Below, piece after piece: positions 2,882 to 7,972 of a stretch of 11,028 nt of DNA. Position 1 is the first letter of the stretch. Each line of letters starts with the position of its first letter. This DNA is from Candidatus Zixiibacteriota bacterium (GTDB taxonomy: Bacteria; SM23-81). The DNA lies in NCBI GenBank assembly GCA_030628225.1, contig DAOVRJ010000061.1, forward strand, positions 1 to 11,028, given 5' to 3'. The notes beneath the pieces are model-generated. The model was given only the letters and a program-made list of their open reading frames with translations. It was not told the origin of the DNA and ran no database searches. The position numbers were made by a program, and so were the translations under genes.

Positions 2882-4531
2882 ATGAGCATGTTCTGTTACC
2901 AATGCGAGCAGACGGCCAAAGGGACCGGCTGTACCACACAGGGTGTCTGTGGCAAAGATCCGCAGACGGCAACCCTGCAGGATCTGTTGATATATGCCAC
3001 CAAAGGATTGTCCATGTACGCCCATAGGGCGCGGGAGTTTGGCGTCAAGGACCACGAGATCGACGTGTTCACCCTGGAGGCCCTGTTCACCACGGTGACC
3101 AATGTGAACTTCGATCCGCAGCGGCTGCAGGGGTTGCTCAGGAGAGTGGCTGAATTGCGCGACAGGGCTAAAAGCCTTTACGAAGAGACGTGTAGTAAGA
3201 ACGGGCAAGAGCCGGAAGATCTGGGCGGTCCTGCTTTATGGTCGCCAGCCAAGGATCTTGATGGCCTGATCCAGCAGGGCCGGGAGGTGGGCATCGCCGG
3301 GCGAAAGGAGCGTCTCGGCGAGGATATCACCGGCCTGCAGGAGCTGCTCACCTATGGGCTCAAGGGCATGGCTGCCTACGCCGATCACGCTCAGATCCTG
3401 GGTCATGAGGACGATGAGGTGTATGCCTTCTTCCACGAGGCTCTGGATTTTCTGACCAAAGAGGACCTCACCGTTGATGAACTGGTGGCCATGAACCTCA
3501 GCTGCGGTGAGGTGAACCTGAAGGTCATGGAGCTGTTGGATGCTGCCAATACCGGCGCCTACAGGGATCCGCTGCCCACCCCGGTGCGCATCGAGCCGGT
3601 CAAGGGCAAGGCCATCCTGATCTCCGGGCACGACCTGAAAGATCTGGAAGCGCTGCTCAAACAGACTGAAGGCAAGGGGATCAATGTCTATACCCATGGG
3701 GAGATGCTTCCCGCCCACGGCTATCCCGAACTGAAGAAGTACAAACACTTCGTGGGCAACTACGGCGGTGCCTGGCAGGACCAGCGCAAAGAGTTCGACC
3801 AATTTCCCGGGGCCATTTTGATGACCACCAACTGCATCCAGAAACCCAGGGAAACCTACAAGGGCCGGATATTCACCAGCGGGCTGGTGGCCTGGCCCGG
3901 CGTCGTGCACATCAAGAACCGGGACTTTACCCCGGTCATCGATGCCGCCCTGGCCGCCGAGGGTTTTACCCAGGACGGCCCGGATAAGACCATCATGGTC
4001 GGCTTCGGACACGCCGCTGTCCTGGGCGTGGCCGACAAGGTGGTCGACGCGGTCAAGCGCGGGGCCATCAAGCATTTTTTCCTCATCGGTGGCTGCGACG
4101 GGGCCAAGTCCGGCCGGAATTACTACACCGATCTGGCTCAGGCCGTTCCCCAGGATTGTCTCATCCTGACCCTGGGCTGCGGTAAGTACAGGTTCAACAA
4201 GCTGGACTTCGGGGACATCGAGGGCATCCCGCGGCTGTTGGACATCGGGCAGTGCAACGATGCCTACTCGGCCATCCAGATCGCCCTGGCCCTGGCCAAG
4301 GCCTTCGACACGGACGTGAACGGCCTGCCCCTCTCCCTGAACATCTCCTGGTATGAGCAGAAGGCCGTCTGCATTTTGCTGACCTTGCTGTATCTGGGCA
4401 TCAAGAACATCCGTCTGGGGCCAACCCTGCCTGCCTTCGTCACTCCGGCTGTGTTGCAGGTGCTGGTGGACAATTTCAACATCATGCCTATCACCACCGC
4501 CCAGGAGGATCTGAAGGCCATATTGGGGTAG
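2882..4531 (+). CDS. hcp: Hybrid cluster protein (hydroxylamine/nitric oxide reductase), class I
   Basis: A 549-residue cytoplasmic Hcp. The family reduces hydroxylamine to ammonia in vitro and acts in cells mainly as an NO reductase making N2O, and also in protein S-nitrosylation. The N-terminal cluster motif is C-x2-C-x8-C-x5-C (Cys5, 8, 17, 23), the class I [4Fe-4S] type of strict anaerobes rather than the longer-spaced class II motif. All ligands of the hybrid 4Fe-2S-2O cluster can be placed: His250, Glu274, Cys318, Cys405 (the persulfide position, in G-G-C-D-G-A), Cys433 (L-G-C-G-K-Y-R-F), Cys458 (G-Q-C-N-D-A) and Glu492, with Lys494 nearby (S-W-Y-E-Q-K). The length is typical of class I and no residue is missing. 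It is the last gene of the rrf2 unit and is followed by a terminator. The start is set by the AAGGAG site; MFCYQC at 2888 is a less likely alternative. No hcr reductase gene is adjacent, so the electron donor may be the ferredoxin-like protein upstream. Confidence 0.97.
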   Translation: MSMFCYQCEQTAKGTGCTTQGVCGKDPQTATLQDLLIYATKGLSMYAHRAREFGVKDHEIDVFTLEALFTTVTNVNFDPQRLQGLLRRVAELRDRAKSLYEETCSKNGQEPEDLGGPALWSPAKDLDGLIQQGREVGIAGRKERLGEDITGLQELLTYGLKGMAAYADHAQILGHEDDEVYAFFHEALDFLTKEDLTVDELVAMNLSCGEVNLKVMELLDAANTGAYRDPLPTPVRIEPVKGKAILISGHDLKDLEALLKQTEGKGINVYTHGEMLPAHGYPELKKYKHFVGNYGGAWQDQRKEFDQFPGAILMTTNCIQKPRETYKGRIFTSGLVAWPGVVHIKNRDFTPVIDAALAAEGFTQDGPDKTIMVGFGHAAVLGVADKVVDAVKRGAIKHFFLIGGCDGAKSGRNYYTDLAQAVPQDCLILTLGCGKYRFNKLDFGDIEGIPRLLDIGQCNDAYSAIQIALALAKAFDTDVNGLPLSLNISWYEQKAVCILLTLLYLGIKNIRLGPTLPAFVTPAVLQVLVDNFNIMPITTAQEDLKAILG

Positions 4532-4571
4532 AGGTGAGTGTGGGCCTTCGCCCGAATGTGAGAGATACGAT

Positions 4572-4607
4572 AAGGCGAGCCAGGATGTTTCTGGCTCGCC
4601 TTTGTTT
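4572..4607 (+). terminator. Rho-independent terminator after hcp
   Basis: AAGGCGAGCCAG (4572-4583) pairs perfectly with CTGGCTCGCCTT (4591-4602) over 12 bp with a 7-base loop, followed by TTTGTTT (4601-4607). It lies 40 bases after the hcp stop codon and closes the unit. Confidence 0.92.
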
Positions 4608-4705
4608 CATCGGTGGATTTGTACCCACTGGTTCCTTGCCCCGCAGAGGCTCCTGCCTCTGCGGAAGAAGGTGATGTTTTGAACAGGCCAGATGCCCGTT
4701 CTACC

Positions 4706-4765
4706 GAAGCTCGAAGCTCGTTAAGTGAAATTCACCAGAGGTTTTGTCTTTCAGCTTCGAGCTTC
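4706..4765. repeat. 13-bp perfect inverted repeat with shared dispersed 15-mer
   Basis: GAAGCTCGAAGCT (4706-4718) is matched by AGCTTCGAGCTTC (4753-4765) with 34 bases between. The left arm overlaps AGCTCGAAGCTCGTT (4708-4722), which is identical to 2716-2730 on the other side of hcp. Confidence 0.75.
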
Positions 4766-4841
4766 AGCATCAATATCCACCATACTCTTCACTAGCACCA
4801 TACGTCTCACCACGAATAGAGGGGGTAGCGAAAGACCGCGA

Positions 4842-4960
4842 GGCTGGCGGCCGGCCGAACGGGAGAGCGAGGACGGCATGCCCCGGGCTTGTCCCGGGGC
4901 ATAGCCAGCCGATGGCGCGCAGCGCCACGCGGGCTGAAGCGAGGGGGATACTTCCCCCTC
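4842..4960. repeat. Cluster of GC-rich hairpins
   Basis: Three perfect hairpins lie in a row. ATGCCCCGGG (4878-4887) pairs with CCCGGGGCAT (4893-4902) over loop CTTGT. TGGCGC (4913-4918) pairs with GCGCCA (4922-4927). GAGGGGGA (4941-4948) pairs with TCCCCCTC (4953-4960). GGCTGGC (4842-4848) and GCCAGCC (4904-4910) could enclose the first hairpin. It could be a REP/BIME-like cluster or a structured RNA; the sequence alone does not decide. Confidence 0.6.
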
Positions 4961-5015
4961 CTAATCCTTCCCCAGCGGCAGTCGGCATGATTTTACCACC
5001 CCACCCCAAAAGCAG

Positions 5016-5048
5016 ATTCTTCGACCTCTTCGAGGTCTCAGAATGACA
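5016..5048. repeat. REP-like imperfect hairpin ending in GAATGACA
   Basis: ATTCTTCGACCTC (5016-5028) and GAGGTCTCAGAAT (5032-5044) match as inverted arms at 11 of 13 positions around a 3-base loop, followed by GACA. The AATGACA end is the same as that of the 89-bp element at 7791-7879, so this may be a shortened or decayed relative. Confidence 0.55.
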
Positions 5049-5099
5049 GGAATGTTTATTTTTCCCGAGCCCCGGTCACCTCTAAACTTTCATTATTCC

Positions 5100-5128
5100 T
5101 TGACATTCAGCATAGCCAACGATATATT
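5100..5128 (+). promoter_or_regulatory. Sigma70-type promoter for the 5221-7606 gene pair
   Basis: TTGACA (5100-5105), a 17-base spacer and TATATT (5123-5128) match the housekeeping consensus in all but one base. The leader to the ATG at 5221 would be about 85 bases. Confidence 0.7.
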
Positions 5129-5220
5129 AAATTTTCGGTTGAGCACCCGGTTCAACCGCTCGGGGACGGACAGAGCCCTGGCGGAATGGTCAACCTTCTT
5201 TCAGCAAAGGGGGTAGGATC

Positions 5221-6264
5221 ATGGAACGGATGGGACGGATCTGGGAACTGGTGGGGAGAAGTCTGGGGGTGGGTTGTTGCCTGGGCCTGGCGGTCATGGT
5301 GGCGATTTCTCCGGTCGTCGGCGACGAGGGCGGGCCGGTCCCGGATACGGACGAGGAGTATGAGCTGTTTCTCAAGGAGAATCCGGAGTATAAGGCCCAG
5401 ATGGAGGAGATGGACAGCCTTTTGGCCGGGGACGAGGAGCTGGAGGAGAGCTATTTAGCCTATCAGGAATCTCTCAACGCCAACCCGGAGCTGGCCGGGC
5501 AGGAGAGCACCTTCTTCGAGATCCTGGAAGAGGATACCGTGCTGGCCCAACGGCTGACAGAGTTCGAGGGGATCGCCGCCCAGGACTCGGAGGCAGTGGA
5601 CCAGCTTGCCGGCATGGACAGCCTGCTGGCCGCCGAGCCGGAGCTGGCCGAGAGGGTCGAGGAGTTTGAGGTTGCTGCCGCAGAGGACGCTGAGTTTTTC
5701 GATGAGTACGAGGAGCAGATCGCCTATCTGCAGACCAATCCTGAGGAGGCCGAGGAGTTCTTCGCCGACGAGGACGGTCCCAACTACACGGGAGACGATC
5801 CCGACATGGTGGTCTTCGTCAACTACCTAACGGTCCATCCACCTCTGTACCGGGCATACTGGCGGCTGTACTACTATCTGAGGACGCATCCGCCGCTGGC
5901 CCAACGGGTCTACCGGCACTGGCGCTGGTACTGGCCGCGCCGGCCACTGTGGAGAGCTCACTGGCGCTATCGCCTGTGGGCGGCCCGTAAGGTGAGAGTT
6001 CACCGAATCGTGTGGCGCCGGCGCATCTATTTTGGGCGCCGTCCCTGGCTGAACAGGGGGATCCGGCATCACCGGTTAGTGGTGGCCCGGCGGCCGTGGG
6101 CCAGGCCGGTCTTACGGCGGCACCGCGCCTTCCTGATCAGGCACCCCAAATACTCCCATGCTGTGGCCCGGCACCACCACTGGGTGAAGAAGCACCATCC
6201 CCGGCCGTATAGGCCAAGGCCACACCACAGGCCGAAACCGCCGCCCAGGCCGCGCCGGCCCTGA
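5221..6264 (+). CDS. Secreted two-block acidic/basic protein, unknown family
   Basis: A 347-residue protein of no family I recognise. Residues 1-34 look like a signal peptide (basic start, core G-C-C-L-G-L-A-V-M-V-A-I, then P-V-V-G-D). Residues 35-195 are strongly acidic, with about 53 Asp/Glu against four Lys/Arg by hand count. They contain repeated helical segments with N-P-E or E-P-E (54-56, 88-90, 139-141, 173-175) and M-D-S-L-L-A twice (64-69, 132-137). Residues 196-347 contain no Asp or Glu but about 59 Arg/Lys/His and many Trp and Tyr, with repeated H-P-P-L (206-209, 223-226) and a Pro/His/Arg tail. Apart from Cys19-20 in the signal region there is no cysteine. An AAAGGGGG ribosome binding site (5206-5213) supports the start. 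The basic block could bind nucleic acid, polyphosphate, lipopolysaccharide or the protein's own acidic block. A phosphoesterase gene follows after 37 bases, so the two are probably co-transcribed. Confidence 0.8.
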   Translation: MERMGRIWELVGRSLGVGCCLGLAVMVAISPVVGDEGGPVPDTDEEYELFLKENPEYKAQMEEMDSLLAGDEELEESYLAYQESLNANPELAGQESTFFEILEEDTVLAQRLTEFEGIAAQDSEAVDQLAGMDSLLAAEPELAERVEEFEVAAAEDAEFFDEYEEQIAYLQTNPEEAEEFFADEDGPNYTGDDPDMVVFVNYLTVHPPLYRAYWRLYYYLRTHPPLAQRVYRHWRWYWPRRPLWRAHWRYRLWAARKVRVHRIVWRRRIYFGRRPWLNRGIRHHRLVVARRPWARPVLRRHRAFLIRHPKYSHAVARHHHWVKKHHPRPYRPRPHHRPKPPPRPRRP

Positions 6265-6301
6265 GAATGATTTGCAGCGTATCATTTGATGAGGTAAGTA
6301 G

Positions 6302-7606
6302 ATGATTCGTCTGAAAAGCGGTTGGCTCATCTTTATGCTGACCGTGGTGATGCTGATCTGTGCCCGAGATGTGAACGCTGTTCCTCTCGACATCTCGGGC
6401 ATCGTCTTCCAGGATGCCAATGCCAACGGCCGTCTGGACGCCGACGAGCACTCTTTGCCGGAGGTTGTCATATCCGATGGTGTGCAGGTGGTGCGGGGCG
6501 ACCGGTGGGGGCGGTATCGCCTGTCCACGGAGAGCTCGCGGGTGCTCTTCGTCTGTCCGCCCGGGGACTACCGGGCCAATGGCGAGTTCTTCGAATATCT
6601 GCTCGGGCATCGCAACGGGGACATCGTCGATTTTCCCCTAGTCAAGCACGACTGCTCGGACACCTTCTGCTTCCTTTTCTTCACCGACTCTCATGTGACC
6701 GCAGAGGAGAAATTCAACGCCGTGGCCGGGATGAAGGCGGCCGTGGCCCACATGAGCCGCCAGGAAGTGGATTTGGTCATCTCCGGGGGCGACCTGATCA
6801 TGGATGCCCTGAGAGCTTGTGAGCCCGAGGCCAGAGCTCAATATCAGCTTTATCAGGAGCTGGTTTCCCCGCTGAAGGTGCCCCTGTTCAACGCCGTGGG
6901 CAATCACGAGCTGTACGGGGTCTACTTAGAGGGCGTGGGAGAGGATCCATGCATCGTGGAGGAAGACGATCCCCTGTATGGTATGGGCATGTACCGGGAG
7001 TATCTGGGGCCGGACCACTACTCCTTTAACTGGGGACCTTACCACTTCGTGGTGCTCAATACCCTGGGTCTTACCCGGGTGCGAAATTCCCGGGGGGACA
7101 CCATCAGGACTTACTACGGCACCGTGGGACCGGAGCAAATCGAGTGGCTGCAGAGGGATCTGCAGATGGTCCCAGCCGAAGCTCCTATCGTCCTGGTGGG
7201 CCATATTCCCTTCGTCAGCCTCACGCTCACCTTCGAGGGTTACCACGACTGGCAGGTGATCGACTACGACCTGGAGGACCCGAAAGCGAAGAGCTTCGTT
7301 CATACCGTCAACAACACACCCCGGGTGATCAACAAGGTACTGGCCGGTCGCCGGATCATCCTGGCCCTGGCCGGGCATCATCACAACTACGAGGTGAGTC
7401 GCTGGGCCGACAACGAGCACGACCTGACCTTCGTCACCGGAGGATCGATCTGCGGCCAGTGGTGGGCGGGAGACCGGCGCATCGCCGGCAGTAGTTGGCC
7501 GGAGGGGTATGTCCTGGTTAGACTTAAGGATGGCCGGCTGGACGATCTACGTTACGTCTCCTACGGATGGCGGGGATATAAAGAAAGACAGATCCTTGAT
7601 CCTTGA
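6302..7606 (+). CDS. Exported calcineurin-like metallophosphoesterase with EF-hand-like N-terminal domain
   Basis: A 434-residue exported phosphoesterase. A signal peptide spans 1-26 (hydrophobic 8-20, probable cleavage after V-N-A). Residues 31-114 form a small beta domain like the N-terminal domain of calcineurin-like phosphoesterases. It carries a calcium loop D38-x-N40-x-N42-G-x-x-D46-x-x-E49 and then V-I-S-D-G-V-Q-V-V. The catalytic domain starts near 121 and has the full metal set: D129-x-H131, G163-D164, G200-N201-H202-E, G300-H301 and G358-H-x-H361. It should hydrolyse a phosphomono- or diester outside the cytoplasm; the substrate cannot be named. GAGG at 6291-6294, seven bases upstream, supports the start. 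The 37-base gap after the two-block protein indicates one operon. The last residues, Q-I-L-D-P, are encoded by the start of the GATCC-rich repeat tract, so the original C-terminus may have been altered. Confidence 0.92.
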   Translation: MIRLKSGWLIFMLTVVMLICARDVNAVPLDISGIVFQDANANGRLDADEHSLPEVVISDGVQVVRGDRWGRYRLSTESSRVLFVCPPGDYRANGEFFEYLLGHRNGDIVDFPLVKHDCSDTFCFLFFTDSHVTAEEKFNAVAGMKAAVAHMSRQEVDLVISGGDLIMDALRACEPEARAQYQLYQELVSPLKVPLFNAVGNHELYGVYLEGVGEDPCIVEEDDPLYGMGMYREYLGPDHYSFNWGPYHFVVLNTLGLTRVRNSRGDTIRTYYGTVGPEQIEWLQRDLQMVPAEAPIVLVGHIPFVSLTLTFEGYHDWQVIDYDLEDPKAKSFVHTVNNTPRVINKVLAGRRIILALAGHHHNYEVSRWADNEHDLTFVTGGSICGQWWAGDRRIAGSSWPEGYVLVRLKDGRLDDLRYVSYGWRGYKERQILDP

Positions 7607-7879: not shown

Positions 7880-7890
7880 AAAGAGAGGTT

Positions 7891-7943
7891 CTCCCAACTC
7901 TCACAACTCGCCTAACTCTCAAAACTCTCTCAACTCTCAAAAC
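7891..7943. repeat. Low-complexity AACTCTC tract
   Basis: The words CAACTCTC and AAAACTCTC alternate imperfectly over about 50 bases. No gene or promoter is visible within it. It is followed by another GATCCTGGAT-like word on the minus strand (about 7950-7965). Confidence 0.6.
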
Positions 7944-7972
7944 TATAATCCAGGATCGAGGATGCATATTTT

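What the first reader, a model, noticed from the sequence alone, without database searches (positions are those of the whole stretch)
5221..6264. Secreted protein with a strictly segregated charge: acidic block then 152 residues without Asp or Glu
About 53 acidic residues in 35-195 are followed by a Trp/Tyr/Arg/His-rich block with no acidic residue. This is not a composition artefact of a wrong frame: codon use is regular, and there is a signal peptide, strong promoter and ribosome binding site. Such a diblock may self-associate, phase-separate, bind nucleic acids, phosphate polymers or LPS, or act as a pro-peptide-masked cationic toxin or antimicrobial. I recognise no family.
Basis: partly seen in the sequence, partly recalled or inferred. 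Interest (0 to 1): 0.68.

Follow-up and report, generated by a model that had tools for sequence, protein, structure and literature searches.

The report
Charge-split helical repeat secreted protein
A probably secreted bacterial protein is built from one 17-residue helical unit repeated about sixteen times, the first eight copies strongly negative and the last eight strongly positive; this suggests a sticky, self-assembling or polymer-binding envelope protein that no protein-family library yet names.

Summary
Residues 35-195 hold 53 Asp/Glu; residues 196-347 hold none (pI 4.05 versus 12.0). Eight acidic units (49-184), a 16-residue linker (185-200) and eight basic units (201-336) share one register. 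Hydrophobic positions are kept while exposed positions swap charge. The 17-residue period stands out in each half alone (0 of 2,000 shuffles).

The unit resembles an unnamed family of secreted repeat proteins (W-L-x-x-H-P-E-V-A-x-x-L-Y-x-N-R) found in a few bacteria of other phyla, usually behind EF-hands. A profile built without the window protein recognises both halves, weakly but above shuffles, TPR and DUF3106 controls. In a relative's AlphaFold model the units form a compact alpha-solenoid. The window protein's own model is unusable (pLDDT 43). No Pfam, NCBIfam, PHROG or PDB match was found, and the sister genus lacks the gene at the same locus. Two of the four closest relatives show a milder acidic-to-basic polarity.

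Most likely role (inferred): an envelope or extracellular electrostatic scaffold, with the basic half binding polyanions or the acidic half of a neighbour. A masked cationic antimicrobial is possible but unsupported. Interesting, not revolutionary.

The parts
5100..5128 (+). sigma-70-like promoter TTGACA-17-TATATT
   Evidence: Consensus scan, 11 of 12 matches; 2 sites found in the region versus 1.1 expected, so suggestive only
5221..6264 (+). 347-aa charge-split 17-residue repeat protein (whole gene)
5221..5322 (+). putative signal peptide, residues 1-34 (hydrophobic core LGVGCCLGLAVMVAIS, possible cleavage after VVG)
   Evidence: Read from the sequence; no predictor available
5365..5772 (+). 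eight acidic 17-residue units, residues 49-184 (net -3 to -7 each)
   Evidence: Periodicity 17/34, 0 of 2,000 shuffles; unit charges; match to relatives-only profile
5773..5820 (+). 16-residue linker DGPNYTGDDPDMVVFV, residues 185-200; charge switches after Asp195
   Evidence: Layout
5821..6228 (+). eight basic W/Y/R/H-rich 17-residue units, residues 201-336 (net +2 to +7 each); the last is degenerate
   Evidence: Period 17, 0 of 2,000 shuffles; unit charges; match to relatives-only profile; hhalign in register
6229..6261 (+). Pro/Arg-rich tail, residues 337-347
   Evidence: Read from the sequence; tail composition tested
6302..7606 (+). downstream calcineurin-like phosphoesterase, 37 bp after the stop, possibly co-transcribed; kept next to pullulanase in the sister genus without the repeat gene
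   Evidence: Pfam Metallophos 3.5e-8; synteny

Best explanation
An exported alpha-solenoid of about sixteen 17-residue helical units, a divergent member or close analogue of an unnamed 'W-L-x-x-H-P-E-V-A-x-x-L-Y' repeat family, in which exposed positions have become all-acidic in the N-terminal half and all-basic in the C-terminal half while the hydrophobic core positions are kept. It most likely acts in the envelope or outside the cell as a bipolar electrostatic scaffold. The basic, aromatic-rich half grips polyanions (LPS, exopolysaccharide, extracellular nucleic acid or polyphosphate) or the acidic half of a neighbouring molecule. The acidic half offers the complementary surface and may bind divalent cations, in the place where the closest relatives carry EF-hands. 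Shown by computation: the charge split, the 17-residue units in both halves, and their similarity to the family. Inferred: export, the solenoid fold of this protein, and every binding or assembly step.
For: Period 17/34 in each block separately. Column hydrophobicity profiles of the acidic units, basic units and relatives correlate at 0.79 pairwise only at zero offset; the next best offset is 0.49. The column table shows conserved hydrophobics at positions 2, 3, 9 and 13, and charge exchange at positions 6, 8, 11, 15 and 17. A relatives-only HMM scores the acidic block 17.4 bits and the basic block 16.2 bits; maxima of 2,000 shuffles are 10.4 and 9.7, and reversed sequences score -0.9 and 3.0. 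TPR controls score 3-7 bits and DUF3106 -0.2. hhalign of acidic units and of basic units against relatives: 84% and 78%, in register, above 200 column-permuted controls each. The relative P0002 is modelled with pLDDT 80-90 over residues 91-220, one short and one longer helix per 17 residues. The low-confidence model of the window protein still breaks its helices at about 17-residue steps. Polarity in relatives: P0002 -5 to +24 (14 of 5,000 shuffles), P0003 -13 to +14 (67 of 5,000).
Against: Sequence similarity to the family is weak (16-20 bits in all), and the two halves do not match each other directly by hhalign. AlphaFold gives no confident structure for the window protein (pLDDT 43, pTM 0.20). 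The third and fourth close relatives show no significant polarity (902 and 575 of 5,000 shuffles), nor does the more distant P0006. No conserved gene neighbourhood ties the relatives to one process. The gene has no detected orthologue, so conservation of the charge split cannot be tested. Nothing shows that it is expressed or exported.
Confidence: 0.45

Rival explanations
1. Masked cationic antimicrobial or cell-damaging protein: the acidic half is a pro-region that neutralises the basic half until a protease cuts in the 185-200 linker, as in eosinophil pro-major basic protein (recalled, not tested).
For: The charges nearly cancel (-49 and +42). A Gly/Pro/Asp-rich linker lies at the switch. 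The C-terminal stretch HWVKKHHPRPYRPRPHHRPKPPPRPRRP contains YxPRP and resembles insect proline-rich antimicrobial peptides in composition.
Against: The acidic half is not a generic pro-region but the same 17-residue unit. YxPRP also occurs in 593 of 20,000 shuffles of that tail. No immunity-like or protease gene adjoins it. Relatives keep mild, repeat-rich C-termini unlike antimicrobial peptides.
Confidence: 0.12
2. Ion- or metal-buffering or envelope-stress protein: the acidic half binds Ca2+ or other divalent cations (taking over from the EF-hands of relatives) and the His-rich basic half binds metal or haem.
For: Three relatives carry EF-hands before the repeats. Two EF-hand relatives and P0005 score above the Pfam cut-off for the haemophore domain MHB (30.2, 31.7 and 29.5 versus 27.4). 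In G174 the family gene lies by an ECF sigma factor, a zf-HC2 protein and a DUF3106 protein. The basic half of the window protein has 17 His.
Against: The window protein has no EF-hand and no MHB match. The MHB scores are mostly sums of weak repeated stretches. The sigma factor link is seen in one genome only.
Confidence: 0.2
3. Disordered polyampholyte: the 17-residue register is inherited but the protein is now a charge-blocky, largely unfolded polymer that forms condensates or a matrix.
For: Very low model confidence, Pro/Arg-rich tail, extreme charge density, no orthologues.
Against: Hydrophobic positions 2, 3, 9 and 13 are kept in both halves at zero offset, which drift to disorder would erode. 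Low pLDDT with four divergent rows is not evidence of disorder.
Confidence: 0.18
4. Artefact: frameshift, misassembly or fusion of unrelated genes at about residue 196.
For: The single genome is a draft assembly in 306 contigs, and the sister genus lacks the gene at this locus.
Against: Codon preference and GC3 are the same in both halves; the other forward frames of the basic block have stops; both halves share one repeat unit and register with relatives.
Confidence: 0.03

Closest known systems
Unnamed secreted EF-hand plus 17-residue 'HPEVA' repeat proteins (P0002 from Candidatus Hydrogenedentota J006, RFFU01000074.1; P0003; P0004)
   Same: Probable signal peptide, uninterrupted 17-residue units with hydrophobics at positions 2, 3, 9 and 13 and Pro at 7, basic C-terminus; a profile built without the window protein recognises both of its halves
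   Different: They have EF-hands, strongly conserved WLxxHPEVA units with near-neutral charge and only mild polarity; the window protein has no EF-hand and fully charge-segregated units
P0005 (genome G766), probable signal peptide plus nine to ten 17-residue units, no EF-hand
   Same: Same architecture of signal peptide, acidic N-terminal stretch, repeats and basic tail, without EF-hands
   Different: Units are near neutral; no Trp/Arg/His-rich block
DUF3106 (PF11304) secreted helical repeat proteins
   Same: Short Pro-Glu-capped helical repeats in exported proteins
   Different: Roughly 18-residue units in the one example seen (L029), no acid/base split; the window protein does not match PF11304 and the DUF3106 control scores -0.2 bits against the 17-residue profile
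MHB haemophore domain (PF16525)
   Same: Shares the short 'YLxxHP' motif with relatives of the window protein
   Different: The window protein itself gives no match
Eosinophil pro-major basic protein (recalled)
   Same: Acidic N-terminal segment followed by a strongly basic segment in one secreted precursor
   Different: Unrelated C-type-lectin fold and no 17-residue repeats; analogy only

Membership tests
17-residue HPEVA-type secreted repeat family | contiguous 17-residue units | tested here: met
   Period 17/34 in each half, 0 of 2,000 shuffles
17-residue HPEVA-type secreted repeat family | unit profile (W/Y-L at 2-3, H/N-P at 6-7, L/V-A at 9-10, L/V-Y at 13-14) | tested here: met
   Weak but specific: 17.4 and 16.2 bits, 0 of 2,000 shuffles each, above TPR and DUF3106 controls. 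Individual units are degenerate
17-residue HPEVA-type secreted repeat family | N-terminal EF-hand pair (three of the four closest relatives) | tested here: not met
   No EF-hand match in the window protein. P0005 also lacks it, so it is not universal
17-residue HPEVA-type secreted repeat family | signal peptide | tested here: inconclusive
   Judged from sequence only; no predictor on hand
17-residue HPEVA-type secreted repeat family | alpha-solenoid fold of 17-residue hairpins | tested here: inconclusive
   Confident only for relative P0002; the window model has pLDDT 43
MHB haemophore (PF16525) | match to the MHB profile | tested here: not met
   No match in Pfam scan or own-genome search
DUF3106 (PF11304) | match to the PF11304 profile | tested here: not met
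   Not among matches at E up to 10
TPR repeats | 34-residue TPR profile match | tested here: inconclusive
   No Pfam TPR match; phmmer to the O-GlcNAc transferase TPR domain E 0.0066, weak; period 34 is a multiple of 17
Proline/arginine-rich antimicrobial peptides | killing of bacteria after uptake, by binding the ribosome or DnaK | not testable with these tools
   Only composition and a YxPRP motif that 3% of shuffles also contain

The most novel reading that the evidence does not exclude
A natural protein in which one helical repeat unit has been charge-inverted block by block, giving a folded electrostatic diblock solenoid whose acidic half of one molecule docks on the basic half of the next, so that the protein assembles head-to-tail into an envelope or extracellular matrix without partner proteins.
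Probability: 0.17. Interest if true: 0.72.

Novelty: new variant of a known kind. Interest (0 to 1): 0.46.

Why it matters
If folded, it is a natural example of repeat-protein surface reprogramming: one core, two opposite charge states in one chain. That would be a direct testbed for how charge blockiness drives assembly in folded rather than disordered proteins, and a ready-made design template. It also points to a sparsely distributed, unnamed family of 17-residue helical repeats, seen in several bacterial groups and often linked to EF-hands, that Pfam and NCBIfam do not yet describe.

Tried and rejected
Pfam, NCBIfam and PHROGs: no family for the window protein. The CHASE3, Ntox1, MCP and GspM matches are far below cut-off and reflect acidic helical composition. 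PDB by sequence: only weak TPR-like O-GlcNAc transferase and coiled-coil matches. The A1 profile match to a pneumococcal surface protein is a sum of weak repeat matches to 'YLKSDG' motifs and was rejected. Fold search of the relative's model: only generic armadillo/HEAT-like solenoids with Z up to 9.7, inside the range the tool warns is common for helical repeats, plus EF-hand matches to the N-terminus. No specific fold is claimed, and absence of a better row is not evidence of a new fold. No relatives in phages, plasmids or viral contigs: tblastn of the window protein against phages and plasmids and of P0002 against plasmids, a viral-contig search, and a DNA pattern giving 58 single matches in viral contigs, taken as chance. 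Genome-contig scans found no relative of the window protein and only P0002 itself for P0002. Hits in G365 and G641 are TPR proteins and L005 is TPR too. Frameshift and fusion rejected. Origin of the basic block by recent DNA duplication of the acidic block: only a 13-base match, so not supported. No Rfam hits or tRNAs. Literature searches found no description of the family.

Full report
Observation. The ORF at 5221-6264 (+) encodes 347 residues. Residues 35-195 contain 53 Asp/Glu and 4 Lys/Arg. Residues 196-347 contain no Asp/Glu and 42 Lys/Arg, 17 His, 11 Trp and 12 Tyr. The longest acid-free run is 152 residues, against at most 61 in 20,000 shuffles of the mature sequence. The halves have pI 4.05 and 12.0 and the whole mature chain is nearly balanced, net -7. 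Codon preference and GC3 match neighbouring genes in both halves, and the other forward frames of the basic half have stop codons. The gene is therefore real and not a frameshift. A promoter-like TTGACA-17-TATATT lies at 5100-5128.

Each half is periodic at 17 residues when tested alone with shuffles of its own composition (0 of 2,000 shuffles reach the observed value at lag 17, for both a BLOSUM and a hydrophobicity measure). Laid out on 17, residues 49-184 give eight acidic units (LFLKENPEYKAQMEEMD, SLLAGDEELEESYLAYQ and so on). Residues 185-200 are a 16-residue linker. Residues 201-336 give eight basic units (NYLTVHPPLYRAYWRLY, YYLRTHPPLAQRVYRHW and so on). Per-unit net charge runs -3 to -7 and then +2 to +7. 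By column, positions 2, 3, 9 and 13 are hydrophobic in both halves, while exposed positions change from Asp/Glu/Asn to Arg/His/Lys.

Relatives. A search of 145 genomes found a 352-aa protein (P0002, E 8.5e-7 over the basic half) with EF-hands and units WLNEHPEVAKKLYENR. It lies in Candidatus Hydrogenedentota J006. Profile A1 built from its units, those of P0003 and the window's own found further members: P0004 in G174 and P0005 in G766. P0005 has no EF-hand. A looser group with irregular HP/NP spacing (P0006 and others) appeared as well. The family is sparse: five genomes with strong matches in about 1,960 genome searches, which overlap in part. The matches to the window itself with A1 are circular, because its units are in that alignment, so separate tests were made.

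Independent tests. An HMM of units from P0002-P0004 only scores the acidic half 11.7 bits and the basic half 14.0 bits; the best of 1,000 shuffles of each are 5.7 and 7.3. Adding P0005 raises these to 17.4 and 16.2, against 10.4 and 9.7 in 2,000 shuffles. TPR proteins score 3.1-6.8 and a DUF3106 repeat protein -0.2 with the same model. Among 1,295 decoy frames the only ones near this level were the window protein's own locus and viral frames that had been fetched because they contain WLxxHPEVA. hhalign places acidic and basic units on the relatives in register (84% and 78%), above every one of 200 column-permuted controls. Acidic and basic units do not match each other directly in hhalign, so the relatives are the link between them. 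Hydrophobicity profiles agree at zero offset only (0.79 for all three pairs).

Structure. AlphaFold with three rows models P0002 with pLDDT 80-90 over residues 91-220; each 17-residue unit is a short helix of about 6 residues and a longer one of about 9, stacked as a solenoid. PDB comparison gives only generic solenoid matches. The window protein's model is not usable (pLDDT 43), but its helices still break at about 17-residue steps.

Genomic setting. In the window the gene follows hydroxylamine reductase and precedes, by 37 bp, a calcineurin-like phosphoesterase and a type I pullulanase. The sister genus (G001) keeps the Rrf2 regulator, ferredoxin protein, cupin, phosphoesterase (72% identical) and pullulanase in order, but has no repeat gene before the phosphoesterase. 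The gene is thus lineage-restricted and dispensable for that cluster. In G174 the family gene sits by an ECF sigma factor, a zf-HC2 protein and a DUF3106 protein, a weak hint of envelope stress.

Interpretation. The anatomy is well supported: one repeat unit, two charge states. The mechanism is inferred. Polarity from acidic N-terminus to basic C-terminus is significant in P0002 (14 of 5,000 shuffles) and P0003 (67 of 5,000), but not in P0004, P0005 or P0006. The window protein therefore looks like an extreme form of a tendency seen in part of the family. The best reading is an exported bipolar electrostatic scaffold that binds envelope or extracellular polyanions, or its own kind. Metal or haem binding, a disordered polyampholyte and a masked antimicrobial are rivals. 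The absence of orthologues and of a confident structure keeps confidence moderate.

Novelty. No library names the repeat or the protein, and literature searches found no description; the libraries and papers searched are not exhaustive. It is best called a new variant of a known kind: secreted short helical-repeat proteins.

Noticed in passing
L029 (G174:C8) 3745-6660: EF-hand/17-residue repeat gene followed by ECF sigma factor, zf-HC2 anti-sigma-like and DUF3106 secreted repeat protein: a possible envelope-stress regulon.
   Followed up: partly
L095 (G766:C70) 2589-2840 and 5143-5826: A full-length 17-residue repeat gene and a separate 3' remnant copy on one contig, suggesting duplication and decay.
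   Followed up: partly
window residues 320-347 (6178-6261): Pro/Arg/His-rich tail with YxPRP, compositionally like insect proline-rich antimicrobial peptides; 593 of 20,000 shuffles also contain the motif.
   Followed up: partly
P0002, P0003, P0005: 17-residue repeats of relatives score above the Pfam cut-off for the mycobacterial haemophore domain MHB, a lead to haem binding or to a shared short HP-helix motif.
   Followed up: no
L096, L099, L101: A looser secreted protein group with 'YLDRHPDVAKQLSANPHLIDNPQYLAQHPELREW' motifs scores 40-50 bits with the 17-residue profile for the two members scored (P0006 from L096 and the L099 protein), despite irregular spacing; the L101 protein looks alike but was not scored.
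   Followed up: partly
window 7890-7944 and 2808-2849: Short tandem repeats between genes: a 9/18-bp array and a 21-bp duplicate upstream of the hydroxylamine reductase gene.
   Followed up: no
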